A DNA stretch of 64,000 nt from Owenia fusiformis (taxonomy: Eukaryota > Annelida > Polychaeta > Sabellida > Oweniidae), in the NCBI GenBank assembly GCA_903813345.2, contig CAIIXF020000003.1, positions 14,958,931 through 15,022,930 of the forward strand. Reading direction: 5' to 3'. Of this stretch, positions 5,601 through 46,448 are shown piece by piece. The notes beneath the pieces are model-generated. The model saw nothing but the letters and a program-made list of their open reading frames with translations, did no database searches and had not been told where the DNA came from. The translations under genes were made by a program, and so were the position numbers. Within the stretch, counting starts at the first letter, position 1. Each line of letters begins with the position of its first letter.

Positions 5601-6558
5601 AAGATAAGAGAACAACTTAGGTCTTGGAAAAAAGAAACTTGTCATATTTGAGTTTTACCCCCGCCTCATTGAGAAGAAAGTATTTACTTTACAATAGTAT
5701 ATTGATGAATCTCAAAAACCATTGTTATCTCCAGTTTTGCATGGTGAATAACTCGTGTCCACTGTTGTAGCTAATAATGATGGTATGTTTAGGGGTTGAT
5801 TTTAGAAAAACTATGATATACAGGCATGACTAGGAACCAACAAAATTGCTTGTAAGCGTTAGAAAAGGTTTAAAATTTATTTTTCATAAAAATTATATTT
5901 AACTGTGCTGCCAAATTACCAACTGTATTTGTATATATAGTCACCTGGAAAAACTAAACAATTTTATTCCAAGATACATAGCATGTACATTATTTGCTAT
6001 AAGTTCCTCTATCACAATCCATTCATGTGTTTTAATAGTGCATTTGTGCCGCAAACCTTGACTGGTAAATCTGCTGAGGGGTTAGGATTGGTGCGATGGC
6101 TTTGATTGTTCAATGTTCTACAAAGCACAGGTGAAGTGTTTAAATCCGGCAGTAAATACTTCCAGTATACAACTAACAGGCGAATACAACTTATGATCAT
6201 CATATGTGTGGTGTTTATTCTGGACAATACAGTTGTCATCAAGCACAATTATAATTTATATGCCACTAGTATATATGCTGTTTGTACTCTCTTACTTTAA
6301 CTCTTCAAGGACTCCTTAGGAGAAATGCCAATGCCGTTACATTGGGACTACAAGCTAATCTGCATGTATGCTACAGTTTTATCACACGAAAGAACATATT
6401 GCCATGCCAAAATGTATCTGTTATGTATTTACATTAGTCACTGGATATCGAAAATAAACTAATAATGATGATGTTGATATCTAAGTCATTGTACGTCATA
6501 TATGCAAGTCATTGAGGACACATGTCCTTTATTATCTTCGAATTCGTGGCTTACATTG
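2612..6558. other. Gene-free stretch between the AO/XDH fragment and gene A
   Basis: No exon of either neighbouring gene was found here on either strand. It contains the foldback element at 3169-4768, a small palindrome around 4785-4850 built on CAGGATTCATATG, and otherwise AT-rich unique sequence. The longest reading frames are under 80 codons and match nothing I recognise. Confidence 0.6.
3169..4768. mobile_element. Foldback element, arms of about 350 bp
   Basis: Positions 3169-3545 are the inverted complement of 4443-4768 with scattered mismatches and small gaps. The outermost shared word is AGAAGTTTAGT/ACTAAACTTCT, and GATACGTTATG and GAGGCGAGCTGGT lie within the arms. The roughly 0.9 kb between the arms is not palindromic and encodes nothing recognisable. 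This is the layout of a non-autonomous DNA transposon or foldback element. No clear target-site duplication was seen. Confidence 0.7.
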
Positions 6559-6850
6559 CTTACACAATTTGTCCATATATTCATTTCACTGTATTATGAT
6601 ATGATGCAGACCCTCTTTGCCGTGTCAGCTTACACAATATGTCCATATATTCATTCCACTGTATTATGATATGATGCAGACCCTCTTTGCCGTGTCACCT
6701 TACACAATACATGTATGTCCATATATTCATTTCACTTCATTTCACTGTATTATGATATGATGTCTTTGCCGTGTCAGCTTAAACAATATGTCCATTTATT
6801 TATTTCACTGTATTATGATATGATGCAGACCCTCTTTGCCGTGTCAGCTT
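6559..6850. repeat. Four tandem copies of the end of gene A's last exon
   Basis: About four units of 70-80 bp start near 6559, 6629, 6699 and 6778. Each carries CTTACACAAT, a GTCCATATATTCATTTCACTGTATTATGATATGATG stretch of sequence (in shorter or longer form) and CTTTGCCGTGTCAGCTT. The rightmost unit is the coding end of gene A plus its stop; the other three lie in the 3' flank. The third unit has lost CAGACCC and gained a small TTTCACTTCA duplication. Gene B has no such array. Confidence 0.85.
6795..6804 (-). terminator. Overlapping polyadenylation signals of gene A
   Basis: Read on the minus strand, AAATAAATAAATGG begins nine bases after the stop codon and contains two overlapping AATAAA hexamers. 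This is unusually close to the stop, giving a very short 3' UTR if used. Confidence 0.5.
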
Positions 6851-6936
6851 TTTGTTTACGTTCCTCCAACTCAGCCAGCATCTGCAGTGCTTGTAATCCT
6901 TTCACAGCCTCGTGAAGTTCATGAAGTGGCTTGGAC
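6813..6936 (-). CDS. Gene A terminal exon with CaaX prenylation motif
   Basis: The exon encodes a charged helix ([15 protein letters not shown], then [13 protein letters not shown]) and ends VCIIS before TAA at 6815-6813. CIIS is a textbook C-a-a-X box with Ser at X, which favours farnesylation, and Lys/Arg precede it. Overlapping AATAAA signals on the minus strand at 6804-6795 lie about ten bases after the stop. The 3' end of this exon is the first unit of the tandem array at 6559-6850. Confidence 0.85.
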
Positions 6937-12900: not shown

Positions 12901-15900
12901 TGTTATATCGAAGTATTAAAAAACAAGTATATAAGTATTTAAATCCTTTAAAGTGTGCGCCAAAGTTTAAAACTGCGCAGGCGCACCGCTCTCGCTAAAC
13001 TATATAAAGAGATTACCGGGTACACGATTCAGAGGTAAGCCAGGAAGGCGAACGATCTTCGTCTCGTGATGATTTCCCATATAATAGTAACCAGGGAAGT
13101 TTCACCATTGAAATTGAAAATTACTATTAGATATACTTTGTAGATGTTATTTATGAAGCTATTTAGTGTTTGCATCAATCAAATGGCTCATTTTGAACAT
13201 ATAAAAAGTATTTGTGTTTTGTTTCCCAGGGAATTGGATTGTATGTAGTACACACATAAATAGTGTACATTATACAGTACTTGAATAGCCTGGTTTACAT
13301 AATATTGAAGGGCATGCTGATTACATGCACACGAGTACATGAATGAAGGCCTAATATTGATATACGTAGCTTGCATACCTAAATAAAAAATAAACTCTTC
13401 TAATCCCCTAATGTAAACACGGCGGTATACGTAGCCCGATTTATCGGGGACTTTAAAGTGACACACCTTTTTCTCTTCCTCCTTTTGTTTAAGTCTTTGT
13501 TTAACCATTTCTCGTATGATTTGATATCCAATCCCCTCAGTAGCTGAACTAGAACCTCCAGACACATCTAAGTAAAGCAAAATACTACGAATAAATGTTT
13601 TACAAAGATGAATAATTGTAATTGAAAAATGTTATTTAGTCGTATGAATATTACATATTACTACGTGCAAGTAAGTAGTACAAACGAGAGCGACGGGATA
13701 AGTTGTTTTACACGTTTTTTAAATGCTGTTGTGCTCTTTTGACGTTGTGTGGTTAATCCCAATAAGCTTTAAGCAATAGGTTTTTTTTATCTATATTGGT
13801 GTTTTTGACTCCAGATTGTACATTATGGCGTTTGATTTGCGGATATATATTGACCCTTTGTTACGTTTTTGGACTTACGAGACTGGATTGTGTCTGTCCT
13901 ACCTCAACTTGTATGAATACTAGATAAGTATCTACAACTACGTTTGATGTTATGAGTATTAGTTATCAGTTTAGATTTAACTTGACATTGTAATGATTTC
14001 AGTATGAATGAAATGTCCCTTGGTACTATGTTCCCGTATTGTGATAATGGTACTAGGGGGAGGGGGTATAAGACATTGCTTCTTTTTACGTCAGATCATG
14101 GTTTTGGATAGTCGGGTGTGTTTCCTTATGATTTTACTTATAGAGTACTCTTGTTCTGTCATTTAACAGTTTTCAGACCTTTCCCTTTGGCACTTGTGCT
14201 TGCATGTTGATAATTTGTTTGTCTATTAGTATAGGATGACCATGTGGTGTCCATTTTAAAACCCAAATGGAGACACACTGCAAATACAAGTCGCCTTCGT
14301 TGGTATAAAACTCACTGAATTTATGATCCTCATGAAGCCCTATCCCTTCACAGACGCTGCATAGATCATAGTTCTCACACTCAGCGCATTTGTAGCGTTT
14401 ACCATATACATCATGCAGACAACCATCGCAGGTCACACCGGGATGCTTCTGAAGACTTTTTTCATTGTCTGTTTGGTGGAAAAATAAAGGTTTTAGACAA
14501 AGCATTTCTAAATGAATCAATACTACAGCATGTATCCTTTCATCAAGGGATATACTGATCTTACCTGGTCTTGAAATAAACCTTTGCGGCTCGCTAACAG
14601 TTATGAATGTATGTTGCTTGTGGATACCCTTTGCTGCACATATTTCGCAAAGGCTGTAGTCATCACACGTTGCGCATTTATTTAGATCACCGACAATTGG
14701 CCCCTCACACTCATTGCATCGCATTCCATAATGAAGTGCCCCTTTGAAGAAAAAAAGAACAATTGCAAGTGACAGTTTCGAGAACTTAATTTTGGTATAT
14801 ATCTAATCTATCCCCGATTCAATAGTGTTATAACCATCAACACTCCTGTAAAAACTGGGCTCTATCAGTCGTCTCTAGCATTCACATTAGCTATAGTAAT
14901 GTGTATGTCACGTTTTTTTCTTTAAATGACATACATTTCCAAATTCTCTTTTAATATGATTGCTTGTTAAAAGCCAAGCAGTAATCAAAAATACACATAA
15001 GTATAAGTACATTATGTTAAGAAAAAGTAAGCAATCAAACTGATGTATTGAATTCAGATACAGATAGTGAATGATAGAATGAACGTAATATGGAAGGGAT
15101 GATTTGTACACCTTTTCCAAAACAAAGTATATATTTACACATATCTACATCTACTAAGAATAAGATTTGATGTAAATGAAAGTGAGCCTTCAAATTTAAT
15201 TAACTCAAATTCAAATTTACCATCTTTTGTCCATTGTTTTGTGTCAACTATTTTCCAAAATTTACACCTATCGTTATACTGCTTTCCTTGTGCTCGGCAA
15301 GAGGCACACCAGCTACAATCCCTGTGTTTGTAACACAAGTATCTTATGCCCTTTATTGGAGACTGTTTACATCCACTACACTTCGTGTGTCTGTGTGTAA
15401 CCGCAGGGACGACAGCCAGAGAGGGTTCGGCAGCTTCTCCTGAAAATATCCCCTCGTTAAAATATATGCAATTCGTTGCATGGGGGGGGGGCTCGGTTCT
15501 TATGAAATCATGCAGTGATTTTGGCAAATCCTGGCTACAGGCCAACTCACATAGAATATGACCATGTAAACACTTGAAAAGGAAAGATTAGTAATTGCAT
15601 TATCGAGATATCTTCTAAAAATAAAAGCAACAAAAAGGAAAACCCAAAAAACGAATCAAAGAAACACCTGATGAACTGAAAGAAGCGTACCCGATGGTGA
15701 TTTTCTTGGTGGTAGAGGCGGTGCTGGTGTTGAAGACTTCTTTGGTTGTGGTGGTAGAAGAGCTGAAGGCGGGATGTCCTTCTTTACAGAGGCTAACAAA
15801 ACATGATAATACTATTATGCACTTGTACCTTTTATCACTGGCTGCACCATGCCCCCTGGATCCGTCAGTGGGTAACGTCACAAAACTTAAATTAATTGTA

Positions 15901-18900
15901 ATTAAAAGTAATTGATAGATCGATTCAATATCCAATTTTACCCTTTAACAAAGGAAGTTTGCAGATTACTTGTTTATTTCTCTTATGGTTTTGTGTGATC
16001 GTTTAAATGTGCTTGGAGTAACTTTATAACTAACTTTCGGTTACTGTTTTGTAATATATCATTCTAATCTTATATTTAAGAACTCATTACCATGCAGCCG
16101 ATCCATGTGTTTCTTCACTTCATTAGTAGATATCCTATCTTCAGCACGAGCGCCGACCATTGCATGAATTATTCGTTTTATATCTTTGATAATGTCAGGA
16201 TCACTACTCACTATCGGCGATATCTTCACATTTGATCCAGCTTGAGCTAGAATCATTCCCATCGGCATGGGCATCGACATTGGACCAGCTAAAATTTAAT
16301 CGTGGGAATCGAAAAATATTACTTTCATTGAAAAAAATCAACATTTGAAACAAAGGTTTCGATTGTCGAGCTGGGGTCGTAATCCTCGCCGACGGATTGA
16401 AAGATATATTTTACCAATATTAGAATTTATTTGGAGGAAGACATATTTTTCATTAAAAATCTCCCTAATACTTCTCTAACAGATCAATGAGCGTACCCGC
16501 CATCGGAATTATGTCTCCCTTGTTCTTTTCAGAATCTAGCATTCCACTATAGATCAAACCAAGGGAAAATACATCAACACTTGAAGTATATTTCTCTTGT
16601 TTGAAGATTTCTGGCGCCATGAAGCAAGGTGTCCCCAAAGACGTGCTCATCATATATGTCTGCATGGAGTTGTCTTTACCCTCAGCTAGTTTTGATATCC
16701 CAAAATCTGTCAACTTATAACAATTAAAATATTTTAATTTCACAGTAAAGATGTTAATACAGACATTAAGTATACTACTACTAATGATAGTATTGCAATT
16801 AATAAAAAAAATATCGACTTACAAATAGAGAGACTGCTACCTATAATTACTATTATTGATCTCTGCTAAAATGGACTTTACTCGGCACTTGATCAACTTC
16901 GAGTGTAAAGCCCCAGTCACGCTTGCCATGGCGACCGAGCGGTCTACCATTAACATGTTTACGGTCGCCTTAGAATTTTTGCGGTCGCATACCTTTTTGC
17001 AGTCATATTTCCTTTGGAAGCCGCACGGTGAAATTTGAATTCCTGTTGATATAAAAACCACGGTTGCCGTACGGCCTTTTAACACGGGGTACCATCGAAT
17101 AATTTTGGCAACGTACCGGAGAACGACATTTTACTAAGAAATGGCAATCATTTAGCACAATATATTTTTTAACTAGAGTTCTATTTTGATTTTGACAAAA
17201 GTAAGTATTCCATGCAATAACTATTTCATTCATGAGTTTGTAGGAATTCTGTTGGAACCCAGTTTTGATCAAGTACGAAGTTATTGAAATCGGCGCAGAC
17301 GGACTTTACTCCGAAAGATGGTTTTTCGATTATAACTTTTCACAACATTTAAGTATAGACTTTTGAAAAAAGTACAGAATAGTCCTTATACTTTTGAATA
17401 ATTCTGTTATTTCTGATTGACATCTAAATTTCCCAATAACGTATTAGCACAGAGCTTGGCATATGATATATTCTCCAAATGAAACAAAGCAGTTCTAATA
17501 CAATGATTTATATTGACTGTTGTACATGCATTCTTTGAAACATCACTCTCTCAATAATGTTTTCAGACTTATTATAAACTTTATTCTAAGACAATTTCAA
17601 TTAACTTTATTTTACAAAACTCCCCTTGTTTCTTGAAATGGACTGATCCAGTTGACTCGCCTGGAGCCGCCATATTGTTTTTATACGGGAAGCTTATCGG
17701 AACCCTTTAAGAGATTGTATTGTGTAAGATAGAGGACATACTTGTCCTTATAATATAGAATTATTTACTTTGAGATCGAAAATTCCATGAATGTTTTTCG
17801 AAAATTCAGAAAGTTATTCCATTATTGGAGGGTTCCAGTTTTGAGTAACCCTGTATGATTAGCCGTTCATTTTTGATTAGCTTCTAAGAACTGAAACTTA
17901 GGTAAGGTTGTAAATATCTGGAGTCAACAGGTCTCAAGTAGGTTGGATACGTTCATATAGGCACATAAACAACCAAGCACAATGTTTTCAACGACAAACT
18001 GCGTTTCGTTTCTTCTAAATTGACCAGGCTTTAAGTCCTCGTTGGAAGGGAATCGTGTCCCAAATTAAAGTACCCCTCCTGGTTGGGTTCATACACGGAA
18101 CTAAATTACTATACTGTACAATCAGGTCTAGAGGTCTAAAATTGTTACAAAACGAACCGTGTACAGGTATATATGTATAAACCCGTATATAGCTTTTACG
18201 GGGCATTGTATAGCTTTTGAGGCCCTGTATGGCTTTGAGGGGGGGGGGCTTGTGAAGATTTTTGGGGCTACTAGGGAGCCTGTATAGCTTTTGGGATTAC
18301 TATAGGACACACCATTGTTCCGAATCCTAATCCGCTCCAGGTCGTCCAAATCCCAATCGTCCGAATTGCATTGGTTTGAATCCCAATCGTCCGATTCCCA
18401 TTGGTCTGAATCCCAATCGTCCCAATCCCAATCCGAATCAAAATGGTCCAAATCCCATTCATCCGAAACCTAATGATAAAAAAATACCAATTGTCGATAC
18501 AATACAAATATATGAGGTATTTGGATTTAAATATCATGATAGAAAGACTTCACATTTTAGCTCAAGGTATCTAAAACCTGCATTCAGTTCCGTTGACAAA
18601 ATCTTGGCGAATGACGTTTCTCTCTTTATGTGTAGGCTTAAGGCAAACACGAAAATGAGGCTTTGGACGTTGGATAATAACGCATCTTATTTTAAGATTC
18701 AAATTAATTGTGAACATTCTTTAAGAATAAGTTAAGTTACAAGTAGATGTGAGTCGCTTTTTTTTAACCCGAACTAGAAATAAAGCCCGACGTTTACTTA
18801 ATGTGGCAGCAAAAAATACAAAGTGTTTAATTTAATATTTCAAATAAACATGTATTGTTGTATTTTATTTCATTCAATAGTCAGACATCAAATTGATGCA

Positions 18901-19712
18901 TGTTTCACACATTGTTCACACATTTTTCTTGCATCTTGATTAATAAAATTAAGCGTTACTATGCGGGATTCGGACGATTTGGAGTCGGACCATTTGGATT
19001 CAGACCAATGGGATTCGGACCATTAGGATTCGGACCAATGAGGCAACCCCCTTACTTAGCTAATTGGGACTTGTTGGCTTTGGGGAAAAGGGCTATATAC
19101 AAAAGGGTATACATGGCCTCAAAAAAGCTATATAGGGGCCACTAGTGGCCACTAGTGTATACTTGGACCACAAATAGCCCAAAGAAGCTACAAGGTTCCT
19201 CTTGTATCCCCGAAAAGCTATATAAGGCTAAAAATAAGCAGCCAGGGGCCTGTTATTCCCAAAAAGCTATGCAATGGGACCTAGCGGCCCCCATAATCTA
19301 ATATACATTATCCCCAAATCTTTATATACTAAATAGTGTACAAAATTCCGAGTATCGGGTAAAATAGTAAATCTTTGACTAAAGGCGTGGATAACTTTGA
19401 ATTTTCCATTGTAGTTTGGTTAACTAACTGTATGTTTGAATGTAAAAATTCAAGGTAATTTCTGATGCATCAGATCTTGAAGAGCTTGACTGGAGCACTG
19501 GTTTGCGTTTTGTTACATCTTACACTAATTGTAATGAGTTTTGTGTCACGTCTGAACGTTTCTGTATATCATTACTTTGATGAGAATTCTTGTCAAACAA
19601 TAAAATGGTGGTACCTGTACACGGTGCCAAATGCCCCTTGTCCAAGTTTGGCAAGTAAATCAACTGTGCAGTTCGAACTGATCCGTATACGATCTTCTGT
19701 ACTTACAGCCAT
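6813..19712 (-). CDS. Gene A: STK35/PDIK1L-like kinase with ZZ fingers, MIB-type REP repeats and CaaX box; kinase exon missing
   Basis: Deduced coding exons, 5' to 3': 19615-19712, 16497-16713, 16091-16288, 15691-15792, 15221-15439, 14565-14741, 14277-14468, 13467-13567, 11479-11580, 11187-11282, 10941-11014, 10594-10750, 10387-10463, 9536-9683, 9068-9182, 8754-8787 and 6813-6936 (stop TAA at 6815-6813). Domains in order: glycine loop [10 protein letters not shown], then from DFG through the kinase C-lobe, a proline-rich linker, three ZZ zinc fingers, an acidic helical region, three MIB-type SH3 repeats, and a charged tail ending CIIS. Twelve exons match gene B in length and phase or nearly so. 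The 370-bp exon encoding the VAVK lysine, helix C and HRD loop in gene B was not found between 16713 and 19615. Joining 19615 to 16713 gives AG+TTGA, an immediate TGA. So gene A is either a pseudogene, uses a downstream start, or has an unrecognised exon. Confidence 0.75.
7040..7211. repeat. Short MITE, about 172 bp, in gene A's last intron
   Basis: The ends read CCGGTGTGAAAG and CTTTTTCACCGG (inverted). The body (ATGGTCCCCCGGGGATTATGGTCC, then TAGGTCACCATA and GAGAGTAGGACC) recurs at about 58366-58535 beside the AO/XDH stop codon. Confidence 0.65.
7270..7600. repeat. Dispersed repeat, partner at 44640-44900
   Basis: TTTCTATGAGAACT, TTTCTCGCTT, TCAACCAATTTTCT, GCGACCTCTAAAA and AAAAAGTTCT occur in the same order in both places, with substitutions and small gaps. 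Both copies lie in introns, one of gene A and one of gene B, but at different positions in the two genes. Confidence 0.6.
7707..8664. mobile_element. Foldback element with nested hairpins (GGATATA/TATATCC)
   Basis: The left end AAGGGTTATGTACTGGGAGGTTTTGGATA is the inverse of the right end, which reads TATCCAAAACCTCCCAGTGCATAACCCC. Inside are a second inverted pair (CCAAGTAGAGTTTT at about 7854 and AAAACTCTACTTGG at about 8139) and a near-perfect palindrome at about 8520-8640 centred on the GGTCCCTTCGGTCCC region. A T-rich tract at 7870-8025 lies in the middle. The reading frames on both strands across 8452-8716 arise from the palindrome. Confidence 0.7.
7870..8025. repeat. T-rich low-complexity tract
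   Basis: About 155 bp of almost pure T on the plus strand, broken by short ATATAT, CACA and GAATT words. It looks like a degraded poly-A/poly-T microsatellite inside the foldback element. Confidence 0.85.
8754..11282 (-). CDS. Gene A REP region: three Mind-bomb-type SH3 repeats
   Basis: Exons 11187-11282, 10941-11014, 10594-10750, 10387-10463, 9536-9683, 9068-9182 and 8754-8787. Each repeat has the MIB/SH3_15 pattern of a D-V opening strand, an L-Q-x-GHGGW-like loop, GxxGxV, then a W-x-NP ending. The matching words are [26 protein letters not shown] and [15 protein letters not shown]; the first two repeats close with KWSVNPALL and KWCINPDLL, and the third with EWVLNKKAV. In MIB1 this module binds the cytoplasmic tail of Notch ligands. 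Here there are no ankyrin repeats or RING finger afterwards. Exon phases match gene B throughout. Confidence 0.88.
11479..11580 (-). CDS. Gene A acidic spacer exon
   Basis: Thirty-four codons in phase 0: PAAESESG, a run of seven Asp, [12 protein letters not shown], then SDDDSDD. The poly-Asp comes from a GAT/GAC microsatellite-like tract. Gene B has the equivalent exon at 39845-39955 with eight Asp and LHLAALLAKI. The short hydrophobic helix between two acidic runs is shared. Confidence 0.8.
13467..13567 (-). CDS. Gene A helical linker exon
   Basis: The exon encodes [28 protein letters not shown] followed by a Glu/Lys-rich run EEEKK, best read as an amphipathic helix or short coiled coil. 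Gene B has the same exon (40277-40386), with EGLGYQIIRAMVKQKLKQQEAEEK. The strong conservation of GYQIIRxMVKQ suggests a real structural element. The donor GTGTGTC is shared with gene B (GTGTGA). Confidence 0.8.
14277..15439 (-). CDS. Gene A ZZ zinc-finger cassette: three exons, all phase 1-1
   Basis: Exons 15221-15439, 14565-14741 and 14277-14468 each begin after one base of a codon and end with one base of a codon, so the block can be inserted or skipped without a frameshift. ZZ1 (KCSGC, then [15 protein letters not shown]) is a variant: the second zinc pair reads C-x2-H and the final His pair is missing. ZZ2 (RCNEC, KCATC, LCEIC, HKQH) and ZZ3 (TCDGC, KCAEC, LCSVC, HEDH) keep all eight ligands. 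ZZ domains bind zinc and usually mediate protein contacts; MIB proteins also carry one. The last exon's donor is my choice of a phase-1 GTGTCT at 14276-14271. Without splicing, the frame runs on to a TGA at 14173, giving an alternative end. Confidence 0.78.
15691..15792 (-). CDS. Gene A proline-rich linker exon
   Basis: The exon has phase 1 at both ends and encodes about 34 residues rich in Pro, Ser and Lys ([20 protein letters not shown]). It begins ASVKKDIP, matching gene B ASVEKGIP. The PPLPPRK stretch has the shape of an SH3-binding motif, although binding is inference. In gene B this exon joins directly to the helix exon; in gene A three ZZ exons intervene. Confidence 0.8.
16091..16713 (-). 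CDS. Gene A kinase C-lobe exons (16497-16713 and 16091-16288)
   Basis: The first exon opens directly with LTDFGISKL, the Mg-binding DFG, then GTPCFMAPE (activation segment end, APE present) and [12 protein letters not shown], whose Asp is the conserved helix-F residue. The second exon continues with [22 protein letters not shown], the helix H/I region with the conserved Arg. Lengths and phases equal gene B (217 bp; 198 against 201 bp). The sequence style (GTx[14 protein letters not shown]) suits the STK35/PDIK1L kinases. The HRD loop that must precede DFG is not in this gene. Confidence 0.88.
18165..19285. mobile_element. Inverted-repeat element with ATTCGGAC-type minisatellite arms
   Basis: The left part (18165-18480) has TATAGCTTTT words followed by repeated CCAATCGTCC, CCCATTGGTCTGAATC and related units. 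The right part (18960-19285) has the inverse: GGATTCGGACCATTTGG-type units followed by AAAAGCTATA words. Between them is about 480 bp of unrelated AT-rich sequence. Units of about 12-15 bp are degenerate. The element sits exactly in the interval where gene A's second kinase exon should lie. Confidence 0.7.
19615..19712 (-). CDS. Gene A exon 1: start codon and glycine-rich loop
   Basis: ATG at 19712-19710 is preceded by an in-frame TGA 18 bases upstream, which supports this start. The exon encodes 32 residues ending [10 protein letters not shown], the kinase ATP-loop signature GxGxFGxV, and two bases of the next codon before a GTACCA donor. Gene B has the same exon shape (32 against 36 codons, same final phase). 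The residues [13 protein letters not shown] align with gene B NCTVDLFTKLGQG. Confidence 0.85.
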
Positions 19713-34904: not shown

Positions 34905-35010
34905 TTAAGATATGATGCAAACCTTCTTTGCTGCGTTTGCTTTTTGCTTTTGTTCCTCCAAATCTGCCATCATCTGTATTGCTTTTACTCCTTTCACAAC
35001 TGAACTGGAC
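34905..35010 (-). CDS. Gene B terminal exon with CaaX motif
   Basis: RSSSVVKGVKAIQMMADLEEQ leads into KQKANAAKKVCIIS and TAA at 34907-34905. CIIS and the preceding basic residues agree with gene A although the exon has otherwise diverged. The motif predicts farnesylation and membrane association. No AATAAA is close downstream. Confidence 0.88.
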
Positions 35011-38000
35011 CTAAAATATCCAATAACGTATTAATTTATTTTTACTTTATTACACGATATTATCATTAAATGCGTTATATATCCGAAAGGATATCAAGCT
35101 GATTAGCATATTCTATTAAAGGGACAAAGTGCGTAAATGAAGTCTCACTTTTGATCTTCATAGTATTTCCTATGGATAAATAAGTACCCGATCTTTCATT
35201 TGACACCAAAAACAGCTCAAACAGATCACATCAGAGTTGACACTAGATCATGAAAAAATATTTTTGATCTATCAATTTATATGTGTCAAGTTTTTAGCCA
35301 TGCCATAGAAAGATGGCATTGTTGTTTGCATTAATTATCCATTCATTTTGATGGGATTTTCAAGCATACGCCATCTTTTAATCCAAGAGTTATTTAACAC
35401 ATCCACAAATGTGAAAAGTGGTAATTCACTTTTTTCAGTCTCTGAACTTCAAATGTCGTTTTCTATGCGAGTAATTTTTTTTTCAGTTCAGTATTATCCC
35501 AAATTAAAGTTTTTATCATATTTGATTGGCTGTGTGAGTGACATGTCTCATATAATATTTTGTCCTTTTTCCTTCCAAAATAGGCACATTGCCTGTTTAA
35601 TGTATGTAATATTACTGCTGAATAAAAAAAAATTGTATATACGAATTCATTCGTAACCACAGACAATATGCAGTTATAATATGGGGCATGTTGAAATCAT
35701 GATGTATACCTTCTTCGCACCAGTTTCAATAACGTAGTCTAGAGTGTCCGGCAAAATGTTGGTGTTGTTCAAAATGCTTCAATCGGATTGGTAAAATATT
35801 TCGAAAAACTGTCTTTTTTCTAATGTTTCGATGATGTGACTATCAAAAGGTAAACTTTTTGTTCAAGTTCCTGCTTCATCACAACCCTGATATATTTTTA
35901 CAATATTGGAACAGGTGTAGGATCATATTCACCTGTTTTATTAAATTACATATACAAATCGGAAGTTTTCACTTATTGAACATTGAGATAAGAAGGTTAA
36001 GATCATGATTGGCGCTTGGCCCAAATCGAAACTGCATACTGACTGTGTGCTACTCAAATGTGATGAGCAGAATTCCATCAGTTATTCCTGAGAACAAATC
36101 CTTCAGAACAAAGGGGAGTATATTGTATACCATTATAGTTACAATTTCAAGAAAAGAGCAACGTAAGTTTCGAGGAGTTGTACATGTAGTCCCGGACTTT
36201 AATATTCATGAATACTTAAATAAATGATAATATGAAGAAGTGCCCACTCTAATCTACATCCATTAAACTCGACTTAATCGACAACGACACACTTGCAATC
36301 TAGAAAATAAGCTACGTACCGATCAAGGACTATATTCGCTTTCATCATATCACCTAAAACACAAAAGGTGAGATTATTGATTATCGGCATCATGGTCAAA
36401 TTGATGTCATTCTTGGACAAACCAATACTAAAAATGCCACATACTTCCTGATGCAACAAGTATCAAAGCTTTACTGTTGAAAACCAACTCAATATCATTG
36501 ACGTCTACTACAGCTCGTTTCCCGTCAGTTTGCTTCACGACTGCAGCGTGTCCCAAAGCCTGGAAAAAGATTTTAAAAACAGATTTTATACACATTTGTT
36601 GATTATGCTTGCAATGGTTTTACTAAGGTTGAACTTGTTGAAGGGGGGGGGGGGGGTGTTATTCTTATTTTCTTCAATTGCACCCTCAACCTTTTTTAAT
36701 CAATTTCGGCTGTCCCGTTTTGGTACCCTGGCCTACTTATACTATTTATTCATCTTACATGTACCTCGATCATTTTTGGAACCCAACTGCCTTGCTGAAT
36801 TTGTTTCACTTTTTCATAGTCGTCGATGATTATAACCAAAGACCCAGAATCGATTTCTTCTTTCGATGTGTCAACCTTACCGAGAAGTTCAGGATTCAGG
36901 CACCATCTACAAAATAGAGAATTTAAGCTTGCACTGCAACGTAACCGTGAATGGAAAGTACATGAATCAATATTATAGGAATAATATAATTTGATTTAAT
37001 TTCATGCATGGAAAATAACCATGTCATTGTCATTAGTGAAACGTGGCTTAATTCTAAAACTTCTGACCTTCTGATTCAGAATTATAAAGAACCAATAACC
37101 AGTTATAAAGAACTGATACATAAAGATCGTACAACTTCAATTGGCGGCTTTTAACGTCAAAGAATAACTTGCAGTGACGATTGTTAAACTTAGAAAATGA
37201 CGACCTTGAACTAATCTGATTAATCATTAAGGTGCAAGGGTGGATGGTGAAACCTACAAGAGGAGGGGGTATATATTTCAAGTCTGATATATTAATTGGA
37301 ACTTGTAATCGTCCTCCCAGGGGAATGAACCAAACTGTGATTGACTATTTTATTGATAATTTATCTGAAAGTCCTTAATTACGTTCAAAACTGGAAGCGG
37401 TTTACATTACAATGTAAAATGATTTACTTGGTGAGAGTGGTTTACTTGAGAATCTGCTACTGAATGATTATAAATCATATCGTACTTAATACCGTTGATG
37501 AATTCGACAACAACATCACCATCATCATCAGTTGAACGTACAATACCACGGATACCAATTGCCTACAATATGGATTATAGATTTTATCACTACAATTTTA
37601 AAATTATTGTCTAACGGACAATGGTTTTGAATTTCGGATGGTGATCATCCCGTTTTACAACATAAACAACGAAATGCATTAGCATGTTATGTTATTACAG
37701 ATTTCTTTAAAAGGTAACCATCTTCAATATAATTTCTTAATTCTTACTTTTAACATTTCCTCGTTGCATCCCCCATGTCCTTTCTGTTTTTCCTGTAATG
37801 TTCGAGCGCCACAGTTGATCATCACTATATCGTATCTACTGAACTTTCCAGATGGTCCACCCTTTTCTGGATCCTTTGATAACAATGCTGGGTTTATCGA
37901 CCACCTAGAAAATGGCATTGTTTTCTCAGAAAGTCTGCCAACATTTCATTTCAATAGATCATTCCGATAAATCCTGCCACCTTTTGATTTATTAGAAAAA

Positions 38001-41000
38001 GTAAGATGTATTGGCTAAATTGATGATGTCATTGGTTGTAGGTAGACATTTGATCATGCAAAAATAAATTATTGCTACTTTTAAAAAACAACCTACAGCA
38101 TGACATTATCAAGCTTGCCAGTTTATCAAAGCTTCTCTGATATATCAAAAGGTGGCAGAATTTATCGGAAATATCTATCGATTAATTTTACATGTTCACA
38201 TCGTACATCCCTTAACGTTGGTTAAGGTTACCCTATTTAAGTCACAATCTAAAGCTTACTTAGATCGCGTATCATTCCCTTTAAAGTCAACTTGAATTTA
38301 GACTTTAACTGAATATAAGTCATTCATTAAGTTAAAATCTGATGATATAAAACCACATACTTGCTTCCGTTATCAAAGTTAATTTTCAGGACCTTTGAGA
38401 GCCTTTCTAGAACAACTCCTCTTTTCCCAAGACACTGAAAGTGAAATTATCTCTTATACCAGAAGTTTAGTTGGCCGGTCATTTGTGACACAAAATATGA
38501 ATTTATAATGTTTCATTGACAGTTCCCGGTAGACACGCATATTCGCCGGGGATATGCATGAACCTCAGTTTTTAACTGATGTTTCGGTAGAACGCATGTC
38601 CTTCTACATAAGTCAATATATAGTTACATACATGTAGCTATAGTCTAGTCAGTATGGGGGTTTTGGCGTTCGCTCGGAGGGATTTTATGGAACATAATTT
38701 TTCATGTTGCGAGTATGATTTTAAATATTTTTGTAGATTATTAGATCTTCGTTTTTTAGCTTATCGATTTTGTGGCCATATTACCCCCGATGGCTATAAT
38801 TTTTATCCCTATTGTAATTATTAGGGTTAAATTGTAAATAGAAAACTTTTTTAATATATAAGCAACAATTTGATGTTAAGATTTGCCCACAGAATCAGAA
38901 TTTGACCGTATATGGGTCCATGACTTATACAGGGGCCTATTTCACAGACTCGAACAAGGGATCGATGGATGTTATAACTTTTAAAATAAGGGAGATACAG
39001 GTCACATTTTTTCAAATCCTAAAGAATTTTTGAGTATTGTATAGACTTTCAGAGTTGGTAATTTATTGGTTGCCACGGCAACCAAGGTTTTATTAAAATC
39101 CGGACCCCCACATAGACATAAATTAAACAAATTTCTCAAATGCGCACAAACGCTAAAAAATATAACCCAGAATGCCTCGACAAGGGGAAAACTTTAAGAG
39201 GAGGTGATCGCATGTTATGTCACAGTAAAACATGTAAATGTAATATATGATAATGGACAATAAAACAGAACATGGCAACCATAAAAATATGTTATTTTTC
39301 ATAAAACTTGCAATTTTGTGATAGCGCTCTTTCGGTATAAAAAGCAGAAAACTAATGAAAAATGTAAAATTGTAAACTTAATGAACAGAAATCGTAGGCA
39401 CAGACATGCATGGCATGTGTCTATATCCAAACTGTTTTATGGGTTTCTCTAGTTAATATATGTTCAAACAACTATATGCGTTGCAGAAATTTTGACCCTC
39501 TAATACGAAGCTGAAATATACTTACACTCGACATTTCACTGACCCAGCCGCCATACCCATCTTGTAATTCCTTTGCCTTGCCAAGGTCTTTGGTCATATA
39601 AACAACATCTCCAGTTGAAAACTAAAAATACAACAACGATTCAAGACACGAGTGTTGCATCGAAGCAACAATTCTTTAAATCTATAAACCCTTTATCTTT
39701 TTGTTTTTGTGGATGTACACTTTGGCTTTACGTTGGCTTTAAAATATTTACATGTATCAGGCAAATAATTTATTTTGAAATAATATACTATATAAAGAAA
39801 AACATACATCAAGTCTTAAAATAAAAGAGTAACATGTGACTTACATCTTCATCGCCCGAAATCTTTGCAAGCAATGCGGCAAGATGGAGATTTGGATTTG
39901 GGTCATCATAATCATCGTCATCATCATCATCATCAACGACGGCACTTCCAACTTGCTAAAATGAATTAAAGGATTGATTACCTGATTACAATAAGTCATG
40001 ATTTTTTTACTATAATTAATTTTTCAAAGTAACTTTTTGTGGACGGTTTTAAGATTTTTCAGTATGGCTATCTAGTGGTTCAAATTTATAGAGAATTCAA
40101 AATTGTTTGTACGTCTATACAGTAAGTAATTTGTGAGTTGTAAGTTATAAGAAATATAAGTCGTAAAAAAGGTACGCCTACCTAATCATGGGAAAATAAT
40201 AAGTGCATAGCATTTGTATATACGAGTACACGTTTAAATTGAGAAGTACGTTATAATATCAAAAAATATATCACACCTTTTCCTCTGCCTCCTGTTGTTT
40301 TAGTTTTTGTTTAACCATTGCTCGTATAATTTGGTACCCAAGCCCCTCATGCATGGCATTCTCGGAATCGGACACCTCGGGCGCATCTTTATTAGGAAAT
40401 AACAATTTAAATCGAGCATAGATGATTATGGCCTGTTAGTATATAATTTGACTATTTGATTTTGTTCATCTCCGAGAATTCGTTATTGATTCTTTCCAGT
40501 TTTTCATGTATTGTTTTTTTCATGAATATCCCCATCCTCAATAAGATTGTATTTTTTCTATAATAGCTATTAGATATACATGTCTTCCTCGTTATGAGAT
40601 TTGTCGAATTAATGTTATTTTTACTGGTTTAAAGCTAGTGATAATAACTGTTGAGCCTGTTGGAGAGTGTAGGTTGCGGAGGATCTCTTTAAATCACATT
40701 CAAAAAATTGTATATGAAAGTTGTTAAACTAAATTGATAAGTATATATGCCCACGCCCTAACCAACTGAACCTCGGCTAAGCGTTGATAACATACCCTGT
40801 GGCCTTGGTTGTGGTTGCGGTGCGCGTCGTCGCCGGGCCTTTGGTTGTCCTTCCGTCGGAATGCCCTTTTCCACCGAGGCTAAATGAACGTTATACAAAA
40901 ACGATAACTCTAAATCTCTAGGTGGATGTGCCTTACAAGTAAATCATTATCGCCAGTAGCCTTTTTGAATTTTCATAATCAGTATTATTGTATTAATTTT

Positions 41001-44000
41001 TATTGTAGTATTCTTTTATGTAGTTGAGTTGCCAATAATGTTTGCTTGGCCAGCTTTGTAAAAAAAACTTTGTAGTGAATTTTACTATGATAATAAAAAA
41101 AGTTAATTATTGTTACCTCCACTATTAAATCCAAACTACGAAATTCAAGAATCTATCAAAATTAAAAAAGTTTCACAATTAGAGTGTACCATGTTTTGGT
41201 CGTCCTACATAATTAATGTACTACAGAATATGATATTCATTGAGTCGTAAGAATACATATACTGAAATGTGTATTGAACTCAACTTGATTGTATGTTACA
41301 CGATTATTCTCATTCTTGATCTAAACATTCTGTAACTGTAGTAACAGGTTCATTAAAATGTTAACTTAATAAACCATTTTATTACCAAACATCCGATCCA
41401 TTTCTTTCTTCACTTCACTAGAAGAAATTCTATATTGGGCAGTAGCTCCGACCATTGTATGTATAAGTCGTTTAACATCTTTGATAATTTGAGGATCACG
41501 ATCTGCTATTGGTGCTATCTTTACATTGGATCCAGGTTGAGCTAGAAGCGCCCCTATCGGCAACGTTGTCATTGTAGGACTGACAGCTTTAAGTTCAGGA
41601 TTACACATATATGTACATTGTATGTGACGTATACGTATAAAAAGTGCGATATTGTATATGAGAGGTTATTTAATGGGAGGTTTTTGATACAGGGTATATC
41701 TGAGGAAATTAATATAAATTTTATTTTATCAAGATAATCATTAAACTTTCATTTGAATAAGTTTCTGATGTGTTTTCTAAAGCAATATATAAAAGTTAAA
41801 AAACATTTACTAATTAAAATTGTGACCATTTAAAAGATGACCATTATATTGATGATGTGTAAATTTTTCCCCAAAAATTGATGACTGGTTTAAAATAAAA
41901 ATGGGTCCAATCCTTTCTTATTAGTGTAATCAGCACCAGACAAATGATTACTATCTTACACACAAAAAACAACAATATATAATATCAAAATTATTTAACG
42001 TGTACAACTTTTCAACCGATATAATAGGGGTTGATTGTGGGGATGGAGGCTAACTGCTCGAAAAAAGATCAGAACTTGCTACTACTCTGCAAAAGTTTTT
42101 ATTAGCTGATAGCATCCTCCAAGGCATCCCCGAACTAAAAATGTTGTCAAAGTGAGTAAATGCCATTTGTTGAGAATTCTGTCTTTGTCCCTAGAGTAAA
42201 TTCAATTTTTACTCATGTACTAGTATCTCATGAAGTACCCTATATTCAATATCATATAACAGCAGCGGTGTACAAAATACCTGGTAAAGGAAGAATCAAG
42301 CCCTTGTTCTTTTCAGAATCTAGTATTCCACTATAGATCAGGCCAAGGGAAAACACATCGACACTTGACGTATATTTTTCTCTTTTGAACAGTTCTGGCG
42401 CCGCAAAGCAAGGTGTCCCAAGTGACGTACTCATCATAAATGTCTTCATTGAATTGACTTTGTCATCTGCTAGTTTTGATATTCCAAAATCTGTCAGCTA
42501 AAACAATAAAGATATTTTCTCACATATACACAATATGGACTGTACAGGTTAACCTAAAGATGTTATCATCTGAGAGGCCTGTTTTTAAAATTTTAGAATT
42601 GCTACTGTGATCGTGTTTCTTTTTTCACTTTAATTCTTATATAACCTCATACGTTTCGACGCTATGCTCATATTACATGTCAAGAGTTGCTCATTATATG
42701 AGCTTCTTAGATAAACCTGGCATATATTGTCATCATTGAAACCTTTACTGAGACATAAGCACCTGGGTAGACTATGTAATAAACAAATACGGGATGGCCA
42801 TGGGGTGGCCATGGATATGTCAGAATACCTATCAGAGGAAAGACGAGGCGAAGCGAAGCGAAGCCGAGCCTAGTATCTTTTTTCGAGGATAGGTATTCTG
42901 GCATATCCACCTCATGGTCATCCAGTATTTATTTTATTATGCACCTCCCTTGGTTAATATCATATTCCTACCATTAATTTCCTGTAGATAAATAAAAGAT
43001 GGTGTTAAATTGTCAAGATATATTTTATTTAAAAGAATGGGTCTACTAAAACAGAAGCTGAGCCTGGTATTTTTTTCGAGGATAGGTATTGTAACAACCC
43101 TTGGGCACGCTCGTCGAGGAGCTGTAGTGTACCGAGCCAGATCCTAGACTCGAAAGATAATGTGCTAAATTCAATGCCCTGTAAGGGAATCGAGCCCAGG
43201 ACCTCCCGCTCTCAGTCAGACGCTCTACCCCTGAGTCATAAAGGCTAGCCACTACAGCTGAGACTGTAGTAGCGACTTGTTATCGAAGGTCATTACACCA
43301 TCCCCCCCCCCTAGAAGACGACGTCCCATCGTAACTGATTCACAAGGGCAATACCACTTACAGTATTCTGGCATACGGGATGGTTGGATGGTTTGATCTT
43401 CTTGCTGCTACGTATGGCAATAGACCCTGAAGCTCTTAACCAATCAGATTTGAATATTTTAATGAGGTGCATAATAATATATATTACTGTACCTTCAAGA
43501 CTGGTACTCCAGTTTGATAACTTATCAACGTATTCCCTGGTTTTAAATCACGGTGGACTAGTTTGGAGTCATGGAGATGCTTTACCCCATCGGCCAGTTG
43601 ATGCATAAAATCCACTTTTACAGCAATATCGAGTTTCCCTTCGACTTTCTTAAAGTAATTTTCAAGATCGCCACCATCGCAAAATTCCATCACGAGCCAA
43701 AATGACTTCTTTAAAAAATGAAAATCATGGAATTTCACCACGTTAGCATGATCGGTCAACTTTTGGAGGATTTTAATTTCTTCCATTCCATCCATTGTTT
43801 CTTCCATCGAGTCACTTGTAATCTGTTTAACAGCAACTGGAGTGCCATCTTTCCGTTCGCCTCTAAAATGAACGAATTCACTTATGTATTAACCATGAGT
43901 ACAGGGTGTTAGCAGCCAGTACGAATACTTTATATCACTTATTGCTTCCCATACTGCCTGCTATCAAAGATAAATGATTCATTATACATTTAAGCTTACA

Positions 44001-46448
44001 CTGTACCTTTCAACTGTAAATTTATTTTGAATTGACTATTGAACTATAAATGCAAGAGGTATTGCACTTGAGCACATGTCAATGTGCGGTTTTGGCATAT
44101 ATTAGCTACCATTCGCAAATTGAACCGTTGGCTGTTGGTTTAACATATACTATTTTATTTTCTTGTAACATATACTAAATGAGACTGACAAATGAGATAA
44201 GCAATCCTCTCGTTTCTTATTTCTTAGGCCCCGCGCAAGTATGTTTTTATCATTAATTTACTATTGGTCATGACTTTAAATATTATTCCAGAGATGTTTA
44301 AATAAAGTTGCCAACTCTTTATTTCTCAACTCTTCAAATTTCCAGCCATTTGCATGACAATTTCTAATCACCTAATATTCCACTATACAATACAGTGTAA
44401 AACACAAATGTGAAGATTGAGCAAAGGATACATTATTTCAAAAATAAAATATATTTAATGTAAGTGCCACTTTAGTCTTTTAGTATATTAAAAAATTGCA
44501 ACTTAACTGACATCAAGGTGCAATGCGCAAACATTTTTGAAAAAAAATAAAAAAAATTATCCAAGCCAATATAACCTCAGTATGCTTAACTTTCAAAACA
44601 AACCAATGTTGATTGCTTGACAAAGTTGAAAATAAGAATATATTATGTTTGAATATTACTGTATCATTGGTTTCTATGAGAACTCAAATTTTAAATTGCG
44701 TTTTTCCTGAACCACTATAAAGCATAAATGAGTTAATTTCTCGCTTATTTCTCAACCAATTTTCTAAATTCTTTCGAAAAAAACATGTGAGGATGAATAG
44801 TACACACCGGCTTATTAAAAATAGTTGTGACCTCTAAAATTTAGTTTTAATGAATTCACGATTTTCTGAGCAAAAAGTTCTAAAAAACATTCGGTTAGGC
44901 TACTATATACAAGTAAGCCAAAGTGCTTTTAAAATTTATATGGGATCTTTGATCATGAAAAGGGTTACTGCCCGATCACAGATTAATAGTGGGCTCAATA
45001 GTGAGTAACTATGCTAGGTCAAAGTATGTTGATAAATTCTTAGAAAAGTGGTGATAAATTCAAAAACATATACAGCCGCTTGATTCATACCGTTGTATTA
45101 ACGCGCAAATCATTACGTTCCTACTCAAAACACTTATACCATGTCACATTTGCCCTACGGCGAGTTCAAGAAGGTAGCTGTTCCCCAAAAAATGATATGG
45201 TCGCCGTACTGCGTATCCCAGTTTTTTTTAGCAGACCGTTCGTTATACAAATAAGACAAGTCTCAGCCATGCCGTTGCGTCAGACTGACCGTTCGGTCAC
45301 CCTGTGGTCTAGTGATGACCGCCCCTCTTCCCTTGTTAAACTCTTAAGATTATAACAAATAATACCTTGTTTAGTTTAGCTTCATAAAGACGAGCCATAC
45401 ATTTTTGTTGATAATGGATATTTGCGTGGGTATCAAACTCAATTATTTTATAAATTCAATTACGTGATTAAATTTACATGTATGTGCATGGTGGTTTTCG
45501 TCTATTTTGTAATATTTTTACAAAACATGACCTTTTATTTTGAAGTTCATACATCACTGTGATACATGTGAAACTTGAAATAGTAAGAGCTCTTTTTGTA
45601 ACCAGGGAACGAGCAAAGAAGCACTTTTCAGACCAAAATAGTTTCATATGTGCTCAGTCCCGTCCAAAATTATCGTTATTTTCAAACAATTTCGAGAGTC
45701 AAATTACGACTCCGAGTACAAGGGACAAGAGGCGATCAACAATTAACGCAAGAAGAGCAATATCTCGTGAAATAATTAAGTATTTATAGACTTTTGAACC
45801 CCTCACTACCTTCGGTCGTTTGGGGGTACAGAAAACGTTTGTGCCTAGCCCTGGGGGTGTATTCGACTATAATAACACCTGCTATGAGGTCTATATTACG
45901 ATTCGAACATGAAAACTCACCAAAATGTTTCGAATATTCATTATGGTCCGCCATAACCACAGACCGCTGTTATGACGTCACACATTACTTGTATTACCAG
46001 GGGCACTACCGTTCGCGAATATACCCCCGGTTAAAATGTTGACTTTGTTCACAGTTTATAGAAGGCGTGAATGCAGTCATGTTAAAATTGAAATTAGAAC
46101 ACCGAACTAAGACATAGTATCACTAAACATTCATCATTATTTCAACAAAAGCTAATGCACAAATATTACTTTATGCTAGAGATATGATTGCCATTAGCAA
46201 TTCAATTTAACAGATAACTTTTCTTTATCTTAGTTGACAAGTCCTGAAAATACTTTTTGCGTAAGGACCAACTGTTTATCTAGACACGCCCTTTAAGATG
46301 AATTTCAAGTAATTAATTAATCATATTTAAACCTGTACCTGTACACTGTGCCATATTCCCCCTGTCCAAGTTTCGTAAATAAATCAACTGTACAATTCGC
46401 GCTGATCCTCCATTTACCAACTTCTTCAGGTTGTCCTGGCTCGGCCAT
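34905..46448 (-). CDS. Gene B: complete STK35/PDIK1L-like kinase with MIB-type REP repeats and CaaX box
   Basis: Fifteen coding exons, 5' to 3': 46339-46448, 43493-43862, 42281-42497, 41386-41586, 40796-40879, 40277-40386, 39845-39955, 39526-39621, 38361-38434, 37748-37904, 37486-37562, 36765-36906, 36445-36559, 36320-36353 and 34905-35010. They total 2004 bp (667 residues plus stop), every junction is GT-AG and in phase, and there is no internal stop. Layout by residue: kinase about 23-299; basic/Pro linker 300-327; helix 328-364; acidic spacer 365-401; REP repeats 402-632; tail with CaaX 633-667. All kinase landmarks are present: GxGxYGxV 28-35, K49, HRD 140-142, N147, DFG 163-165, APE 193-195, D207. 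It is a paralogue of gene A, which lies downstream on the same strand. Confidence 0.9.
36320..39621 (-). CDS. Gene B REP region: three Mind-bomb-type SH3 repeats
   Basis: Exons 39526-39621, 38361-38434, 37748-37904, 37486-37562, 36765-36906, 36445-36559 and 36320-36353. Signature words are [19 protein letters not shown] followed by [30 protein letters not shown] and KWCLNPELL. In the third repeat the conserved GHGGW loop is shortened to GSW (QIQQGSWVPKM), two residues fewer than gene A, so the exon is 142 bp rather than 148. Frame is kept. Confidence 0.9.
37961..38172. mobile_element. 212-bp MITE in a gene B intron
   Basis: ATTCCGATAAATCCTGCCACCTTTTGAT at the left is inverted as ATCAAAAGGTGGCAGAATTTATCGGAAA at the right. 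The centre carries a second inverted pair (GTTGTAGGT and ACCTACAGC). It lies between two REP exons. Confidence 0.75.
39845..40386 (-). CDS. Gene B helix exon (40277-40386) and acidic exon (39845-39955)
   Basis: The first exon encodes DAPEVSDSENAMHEGLGYQ and a helix rich in Lys, Gln and Glu (MVKQKLKQQEAEEK). The second encodes QVGSAVV, eight Asp, YDDPNPNLHLAALLAKISGDED. Both are collinear with gene A. The Asp run is a GAT/GAC repeat and may vary in length. Confidence 0.85.
40796..40879 (-). CDS. Gene B basic/proline-rich linker exon
   Basis: ASVEKGIPTEG is followed by an Arg-rich run KARRRRAPQPQPRPQ. The exon has phase 1 at both ends, like gene A's linker. Only 409 bp separate it from the next exon, with no room for ZZ exons. 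Confidence 0.82.
41386..42497 (-). CDS. Gene B kinase C-lobe exons (42281-42497 and 41386-41586)
   Basis: [12 protein letters not shown] opens the first exon; GTPCFAAPELF gives the APE motif and [12 protein letters not shown] the helix-F Asp. The second exon has LLAQPGSNVKIAP, then IIKDVKRLIHTMVGATAQYRISSSEV, closing the C-lobe. The activation segment is rich in Ser/Thr ([14 protein letters not shown]), with several possible phosphorylation sites; which are used cannot be read from sequence. Confidence 0.9.
42822..42910. repeat. Short inverted repeat in a gene B intron, half-copied at 43053
   Basis: CAGAATACCTATC and GATAGGTATTCTG flank a core of GAAGCGAAGCGAAGC and TTTTTTCGAG. The unit AGCCTGGTATTTTTTTCGAGGATAGGTATT recurs at 43059-43091 and resumes as TATTCTGGCATA at 43363, with a SINE between. 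Confidence 0.65.
43092..43363 (-). mobile_element. tRNA-derived SINE-like insertion
   Basis: Read on the minus strand, 43254-43180 gives TGACTCAGGGGTAGAGCG, then TCTGACT, GCGGGAGGTCCTGGGCTCGATTCCC. These are tRNA-like A-box and B-box (GGCTCGATTCC) Pol III promoter elements in the right spacing. The whole insert interrupts a repeat that continues on both sides, with TATT repeated at the junctions. The acceptor-stem ends do not pair well enough for a working tRNA gene. Confidence 0.7.
43493..43862 (-). CDS. Gene B exon 2: kinase N-lobe, hinge and catalytic loop
   Basis: A 370-bp exon encoding VAVK (the ATP-anchoring Lys49), helix C (MEEIKILQKL), the hinge FWLVMEFCDGGDLENYF, and HRDLKPGN with catalytic Asp142 and Asn147. 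The hinge phrase is strikingly like the STK35/PDIK1L kinases, which carry WLVMEFCDGGDLN there. This is the exon that gene A lacks. Its length leaves remainder 1 on division by three, so losing it shifts the frame. Confidence 0.92.
44640..44900. repeat. Dispersed repeat, partner at 7270-7600
   Basis: See the partner for the shared words. This copy lies in gene B's first intron. The following stretch (about 44950-45110, with AAAAGGG, CCCGATC and GTGATAAA) also resembles 21330-21440. Confidence 0.55.
46339..46448 (-). CDS. Gene B exon 1: start and glycine loop
   Basis: ATG at 46448-46446. Thirty-six codons plus two bases, ending LGQGEYGTVY. The start is chosen by agreement with gene A (MA...NCTVDL). 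The frame stays open upstream for at least eight codons, so a longer N-terminus cannot be excluded. The donor is GTACAG. Confidence 0.82.

What the first reader, a model, noticed from the sequence alone, without database searches (positions are those of the whole stretch)
34905..46448. Kinase + MIB-type REP + CaaX: an unusual domain architecture
Gene B predicts one 667-residue protein with an STK35/PDIK1L-like kinase, three SH3-like repeats as in Mind bomb, and a prenylation box. In MIB1 (established) the REP module binds Notch-ligand tails and sits before ankyrin repeats and RING fingers, which are absent here. I know of no characterised protein with this order. Inference: a membrane-tethered kinase that recruits itself to cytoplasmic tails of transmembrane ligands, replacing ubiquitylation with phosphorylation.
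Basis: partly seen in the sequence, partly recalled or inferred. Interest (0 to 1): 0.85.

Follow-up and report, generated by a model that had tools for sequence, protein, structure and literature searches.

The report
Membrane-anchored kinase with Mind-bomb repeats
A small tandem family of animal genes joins an active-looking protein kinase to the cargo-binding repeats of the Mind bomb ubiquitin ligase and ends in a lipid-attachment signal, an apparently undescribed combination whose targets are unknown.

Summary
Fifteen minus-strand exons (46448-34905), all GT-AG and phase-compatible, give exactly 667 residues: kinase, three SH3_15 (Mind bomb REP) repeats and a CIIS CaaX box. It is one gene, not two neighbours. 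The exon order recurs in a tandem array of six copies; four have complete open frames, with kinase and REP under purifying selection. The CaaX box is kept in 6 of 6.

Paralogues A, P3 and P4 carry three ZZ zinc fingers between kinase and REP, so gene B is a trimmed form. A similar ZZx3-SH3 module follows RIPK/TKL-like kinase exons on contig C2. The mid-repeat exon boundary is shared with MIB genes, suggesting exon shuffling.

The Notch-ligand claim is weak: MIB1's main ligand contact is MZM; no MIB_HERC2 match was listed on this contig, and REP is the secondary contact. Plant KEG already joins a kinase to such repeats.

Best reading: a farnesylated kinase using REP, with or without ZZ, as docking arm; targets unknown.

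The parts
46339..46448 (-). gene B exon x1: start codon, glycine-rich loop
   Evidence: same peptide in B'
43493..43862 (-). gene B exon x2: kinase, VAVK lysine to HRD loop
42281..42497 (-). gene B exon x3: DFG, APE, helix F
41386..41586 (-). gene B exon x4: end of kinase C-lobe
40796..40879 (-). gene B exon x5: Pro/Arg-rich linker, phase 1-1; the three ZZ exons of paralogues lie between x5 and x6
40277..40386 (-). gene B exon x6: charged linker (EGLGYQIIRAMVKQ)
39845..39955 (-). gene B exon x7: Asp-rich linker
39526..39621 (-). gene B exon x8: REP1 first half
38361..38434 (-). gene B exon x9: REP1 second half
37748..37904 (-). gene B exon x10: end of REP1, first half of REP2
37486..37562 (-). 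gene B exon x11: REP2 second half
36765..36906 (-). gene B exon x12: end of REP2, first half of REP3
36445..36559 (-). gene B exon x13: REP3 second half
36320..36353 (-). gene B exon x14: short linker
34905..35010 (-). gene B exon x15: tail with CaaX box CIIS (34919-34908) and stop
19615..19712 (-). gene A exon x1 (paralogue; no exon x2 found)
16497..16713 (-). gene A exon x3
16091..16288 (-). gene A exon x4
15691..15792 (-). gene A exon x5, Pro-rich linker
15221..15439 (-). gene A ZZ finger 1, phase 1-1
14565..14741 (-). gene A ZZ finger 2, phase 1-1
14316..14468 (-). gene A ZZ finger 3 (p62/HERC2-like), phase 1-1
   Evidence: P4 copy
13467..13567 (-). gene A exon x6
11479..11580 (-). gene A exon x7, Asp-rich
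9068..11282 (-). gene A REP exons x8-x13 (span)
8754..8787 (-). gene A exon x14
6813..6936 (-). gene A exon x15 with CIIS CaaX box

Best explanation
Gene B is a real single gene in a tandem family. It encodes a probably active Ser/Thr kinase whose C-terminal half is a Mind bomb-type REP module (three SH3_15 repeats), preceded in paralogues A, P3 and P4 by three ZZ fingers, and ending in a CaaX box. Most likely mechanism: the tail is farnesylated and holds the protein at a membrane; REP (with ZZ where present) docks a partner; the tethered kinase phosphorylates that partner or a neighbour. Shown from sequence: gene structure, paralogues, REP homology, catalytic motifs, constraint on kinase, ZZ and REP, CaaX retention. 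Inferred: lipidation, docking, phosphorylation. The partner is unknown. The family probably arose when a ZZx3-REP exon set of MIB type was joined to a kinase; gene B and its twin B' then probably lost the phase-1 ZZ exons without a frame change.
For: Exact 667-aa model with compatible splice phases. Six copies in the same order; B, B', P3 and P4 give complete open frames. dN/dS B-P4: kinase 0.155, REP 0.172; P3-P4: 0.189 and 0.239; ZZ exons 0.082, 0.129 and 0.123 over the 3 pairs. CaaX in 6 of 6 (CIIS in five, CTIS in P3), about four independent lineages since B/B' and A/A' are recent pairs, while the tail exon as a whole changes fast: dN/dS 0.69 B-P4, 0.94 B-P3. REP matches MIB1 structures. 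Intron positions: the phase-0 intron in mid-repeat occurs in 4 of 4 MIB repeats of this genome and in all three array repeats; the phase-2 intron before Trp occurs in 1 of 4 MIB repeats (repeat 1 of the MIB1-like gene) and in array REP1 and REP2 (19, 62, my reading of the printed DNA). A ZZ-ZZ-ZZ-SH3 module with matching phases on C2, its repeats grouping with array REP2 and REP3. G-loop, VAxK, HRD, DFG and APE present in the four open copies.
Against: No transcript or protein evidence. Prenylation is inferred from a motif. Docking is borrowed from MIB1 and KEG. The tail is not uniformly fast (A-P4 0.23, B-B' 0.365, A-B 0.42; 34-35 codons each). Some exons of P3 and P4 are low-scoring picks (x5, x14) and no x7 was found in P3. 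3 of 4 MIB repeats lack the phase-2 intron. Gene A lacks its catalytic exon and A' is a fragment, so some copies decay. The repeat tree flags the C2 rows as long branches.
Confidence: 0.55

Rival explanations
1. One reading: the kinase docks by REP on Delta/Jagged cytoplasmic tails and phosphorylates them, competing with or replacing MIB ubiquitylation.
For: REP homology to MIB1. MIB1 REP binds the C-box of JAG1, and fly data support the same for Delta; a fly Mib1 lacking MZM but keeping REP appears dominant-negative (PMC11887331 passages). The CaaX box would place the kinase near membrane tails.
Against: N-box/MZM is the prevailing contact and the C-box largely depends on it. No MIB_HERC2 match was listed on C3. 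MIB1/2 have many other clients (recalled). The array has three repeats, MIB two.
Confidence: 0.1
2. A ZZx3-REP sensor module is shared by two different kinase genes (the array on C3, RIPK/TKL-like on C2) and serves stress or innate-immune signalling: ZZ/REP bind a danger-related peptide or adaptor and bring kinases together at membranes.
For: C2 kinase exons, then ZZ1-3 and SH3 exons, on one strand with phase-1 junctions. A Death-domain-like exon lies in that region. ZZ3 resembles p62 ZZ (E 2.5e-15, 80); of p62's Nt-Arg residues, D129, R139 and D149 are matched in 3 of 3 array copies, D147 in 1 of 3, N132 in 0 of 3 (my reading of 39, 80, 84). Array copy number is changing.
Against: The Death match (20.1 bits) is below its cut-off (22.6) and sits in a kinase intron. 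Array genes are under purifying, not diversifying, selection. No expression data.
Confidence: 0.2
3. Two neighbouring genes (a kinase; a REP-CaaX protein) were read as one.
For: A' is a REP-plus-tail copy without kinase exons.
Against: Kinase-to-REP order with matching phases in four open copies and in A. Exon x4 ends in a phase-1 donor shared by the five kinase-bearing array copies. A' has a split x8 match, looking like a frameshift, and reads as a fragment.
Confidence: 0.05
4. The array is mostly decaying pseudogenes of no function.
For: Gene A lacks x2; A' is truncated.
Against: Four open frames; dN/dS well below 1 in kinase, REP and ZZ; CaaX kept.
Confidence: 0.05

Closest known systems
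Mind bomb MIB1/MIB2 E3 ligases
   Same: SH3_15 REP repeats (PDB 4TSE, 4XI6), a ZZ finger, and the mid-repeat phase-0 intron in 4 of 4 MIB repeats of this genome
   Different: No MIB_HERC2, ankyrin or RING in the B and P4 models, and no MIB_HERC2 match listed on C3; three ZZ and three repeats; kinase in front; CaaX behind
Plant KEG (KEEP ON GOING)
   Same: Kinase N-terminal to a long run of HERC2-like repeats that can act as a substrate-binding module (PMC11020294 passages)
   Different: KEG has RING and ankyrin repeats and 12 repeats; no ZZ or CaaX mentioned in the passages seen
STK35/PDIK1L (NKF4) kinases
   Same: Alignment runs over nearly the whole kinase including the C-lobe: B 96 of 257, P4 87 of 266 identical to a recalled PDIK1L
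   Different: No REP, ZZ or CaaX (recalled). One paper found genuine homologues in vertebrates and Ciona but none in lancelet, sea urchin, fly or worm (PMC2737284 passages). A ULK2 fragment scores alike over the first two-thirds (B 278 vs 273, P4 266 vs 269)
p62/SQSTM1 and HERC2 ZZ domains
   Same: ZZ3 is closest in sequence to these solved ZZ domains
   Different: Two further ZZ fingers, no PB1 or HECT; the Nt-Arg pocket is only partly matched

Membership tests
Mind bomb E3 ligases | SH3_15 / REP repeats | tested here: met
   Pfam over cut-off, phmmer 1.9e-17 to MIB1
Mind bomb E3 ligases | MIB_HERC2 domains flanking a ZZ (MZM) | tested here: not met
   8 genome matches listed, none on C3; none in B or P4
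Mind bomb E3 ligases | ankyrin repeats and RING fingers | tested here: not met
   absent from Pfam scans of the B and P4 models; P3, B' and intervening DNA not scanned for them
KEG-type kinase-REP proteins | kinase N-terminal to REP-type repeats | tested here: met
   that KEG repeats are SH3_15 is recalled
KEG-type kinase-REP proteins | RING and ankyrin repeats | tested here: not met
STK35/PDIK1L (NKF4) kinases | kinase domain groups with NKF4 | tested here: inconclusive
   pairwise scores only, against a recalled sequence; a ULK2 fragment scores alike
Active protein kinases | G-loop, VAxK Lys, HRD, DFG, APE | tested here: met
   read in the translations of B, B', P3, P4; gene A lacks x2
CaaX-prenylated proteins | C-terminal C-a-a-X, conserved | tested here: met
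   6 of 6 copies: CIIS five, CTIS one
CaaX-prenylated proteins | actual lipid modification | not testable with these tools
   needs metabolic labelling or mass spectrometry

The most novel reading that the evidence does not exclude
A ZZx3-REP docking cassette of Mind bomb type has been shuffled by phase-1 introns onto two unrelated kinases in one animal genome, one of them also given a farnesyl anchor, so that docking sites used by ubiquitin ligases are here read by kinases at the membrane: phosphorylation competing with or gating ubiquitylation of shared clients, possibly including Notch-ligand tails.
Probability: 0.15. Interest if true: 0.75.

Novelty: new variant of a known kind. Interest (0 to 1): 0.5.

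Why it matters
REP repeats are known mainly as the client-docking part of ubiquitin ligases. A conserved kinase family carrying them, with a CaaX anchor and optional ZZ fingers, would show that the docking code can be handed to a different enzyme. The natural ZZ-plus (P3, P4) and ZZ-minus (B, B') paralogues would let one test what each module binds. Searches of an open-access library listed no paper that, by its listing, describes an animal kinase with SH3_15 repeats; that library lacks most subscription papers.

Tried and rejected
Two separate genes: rejected on phases and recurrence. Domain hits by chance: rejected, except that one REP2 half of gene B scores below the best shuffle. Full membership in Mind bomb: rejected. 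Five of the genome's weaker kinase hits were fetched and look, by recalled motifs, like SNRK, TSSK, LKB1 and MLK types, none STK35; a sixth fetched locus, from the ZZ3 search, looks like p62. The C12 hit with exon x3 reads as a CHK2-like kinase (label recalled). The C11 kinase (51, 67 and 38% identical to B in x2, x3 and x4) showed no REP or ZZ exon in about 17.9 kb downstream; whether it ends after x4 is open, because a donor sits just before the stop. No RING or ankyrin search was made on the C1 MIB-type loci; MIB1-like and MIB2-like are labels by sequence and recall. Structure prediction was not used: its rule admits proteins that the DNA gives letter for letter, and a spliced protein is not that. 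Papers: only passages of PMC11887331, PMC11020294, PMC2737284, PMC6197226 and PMC2394772 were seen; others only as listings.
Full report
WHAT IS THERE. Pfam finds Pkinase (E 8.4e-49) and SH3_15 (E 1.3e-24, 2 stretches). phmmer finds the REP region in MIB1 structures 4TSE (1.9e-17) and 4XI6 (7.1e-16). The last residues are KKVCIIS. As a control, a profile built only from MIB repeats finds halves of all three repeats in genes A and B on the minus strand: up to 33.9 bits in A; 25.9, 16.2, 14.0 and 7.3 in B; the best of 20 shuffled windows is 10.1 bits, so the 7.3-bit half stands only on its neighbours and paralogues.

A TANDEM FAMILY. Exon-by-exon searches show six copies on the minus strand between C3:14.926 and 15.090 Mb, in transcription order P4, P3, B, A, B', A'. 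Genome-wide, exon x12 gave 8 matches: these six, one on C2 and one cross-match. Exon x2 gave 10: B, B', P3, P4, C11 and five weaker kinases. Exon x3 gave 9: five in the array, C11 and three weak. Exon x4 gave 6: five in the array and C11. These searches score only the best candidates. B' is 98% identical to B in exon x2 and also 667 residues; P3 and P4 give complete open frames as well. In P3 and P4, exons x5 and x14 are low-scoring picks and P3 has no recognisable x7. Gene A, inside the window, has no detectable exon x2, so x1 (ending in phase 2) and x3 (starting in phase 0) do not join in frame: a broken kinase. A' is only REP and tail, with a split x8 match that looks like a frameshift.

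Between x5 and x6, genes A, P3 and P4 carry three ZZ exons, all of phase 1-1. Pfam scores three ZZ stretches in P4 (E 1.1e-18) and three SH3_15 (E 7.8e-37) in an 831-residue protein. In gene B the intron there is 409 bases, too short for 549 bases of ZZ exons; the ZZ search gave only short plus-strand matches with a stop inside B and B' (best E 0.011). Gene B is therefore best read as a ZZ-less form; loss rather than gain is inferred from the C2 relative.

CONSTRAINT. dN/dS (Nei-Gojobori): B-P4 kinase 0.155, REP 0.172, tail 0.69; B-P3 0.165, 0.204, 0.94; P3-P4 0.189, 0.239, 0.61; A-B REP 0.139, tail 0.42; A-P4 REP 0.089, tail 0.23; B-B' kinase 0.107, REP no amino-acid change (2 synonymous), tail 0.365; A-A' REP x10-13 0.131. 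ZZ exons: 0.082 (A-P3), 0.129 (A-P4), 0.123 (P3-P4). In this mostly fast tail (34-35 codons) the last four residues stay C-I/T-I-S in 6 of 6 copies, about four independent lineages. Basic residues before the box are present in B, B', A and A' but not in P3 or P4.

ORIGIN. By my reading, each of the four repeats in this genome's MIB1-like and MIB2-like genes is cut by a phase-0 intron in mid-repeat, as all three array repeats are; a phase-2 intron just before the Trp is present in one of the four (repeat 1 of the MIB1-like gene), as in array REP1 and REP2. C2:9957308-9968974 carries ZZ1-ZZ2-ZZ3 and SH3 halves in the same order with matching phases; its two repeats group with array REP3 (95/93) and REP2 (87/88), both flagged as long branches. 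Upstream on the same strand lie RIPK/TKL-like kinase exons whose last donor is phase 1. So one cassette appears joined to two kinds of kinase. That the C2 pieces form one gene is inferred, and the RIPK label is recalled.

HOW IT PROBABLY WORKS. The four open copies keep the catalytic motifs. MIB1's REP binds the C-box of JAG1, and fly data support the same for Delta, but MZM/N-box is the main contact, and a fly Mib1 without MZM appears to act as a dominant-negative that depends on REP (PMC11887331 passages). KEG's HERC2-like repeats pulled down MAPKKK18 (PMC11020294 passages). Hence REP as a docking arm is the best guess, the membrane as the place (CaaX), and phosphorylation as the output; the client is open. 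ZZ3 is nearest to p62 ZZ. Of the p62 residues that hold an N-terminal Arg or its neighbour (PMC6197226 passages), D129, R139 and D149 are matched in 3 of 3 array copies, D147 in 1 of 3 and N132 in 0 of 3, by my reading.

AGAINST MY READING. No transcript, protein or localisation evidence exists here; prenylation is a motif inference; the kinase family label rests on a recalled sequence, and a ULK2 fragment scores alike over the shared stretch; three of four MIB repeats lack the phase-2 intron; no other animal genome could be searched, so how widespread the family is remains unknown.

VERDICT. A real, apparently undescribed variant of a known building scheme (kinase plus REP docking repeats), with an unexpected membrane box and a hidden triple-ZZ form. 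Interesting, but the Notch claim is one option of low probability.

Noticed in passing
window 6558-6850: A 70-base tandem repeat (4.1 copies) made from the end of gene A's last exon; extra units at 6699 and 6629 still read AKRVCIIS-stop.
   Followed up: partly
window 19712-6813: Gene A keeps the family exons except the catalytic x2 and has three ZZ exons; probably a broken or pseudo-kinase copy.
   Followed up: yes
L025:9532-9750, L022:40-4919, L019:309-9715, L020:1790-1975 (C2): RIPK/TKL-like kinase exons followed by ZZx3 and SH3_15-like exons on one strand; a Death-domain-like exon (E 0.0007, below cut-off) sits in a kinase intron.
   Followed up: partly
L019, about 3728-9548 (C2): A minisatellite whose unit reads ..YSAPIHPDALTL.., apparently amplified from the adjoining SH3 exon.
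   Followed up: no
L008:310-8199 (C11): The nearest other kinase of this type is followed on the same strand by frames with an OTU-like cysteine protease match (E 3.9e-6); a kinase-OTU fusion is possible.
   Followed up: no
window 2177-2236 and 61475-61534: The same 21-base unit (ACCGGAAGCGGGAAGATATGC), three copies each, near both ends of the window.
   Followed up: no
L025:2878-8052 (C2): Repeated reverse-transcriptase-like open frames on the minus strand, looking like retrotransposon copies (label by eye).
   Followed up: no
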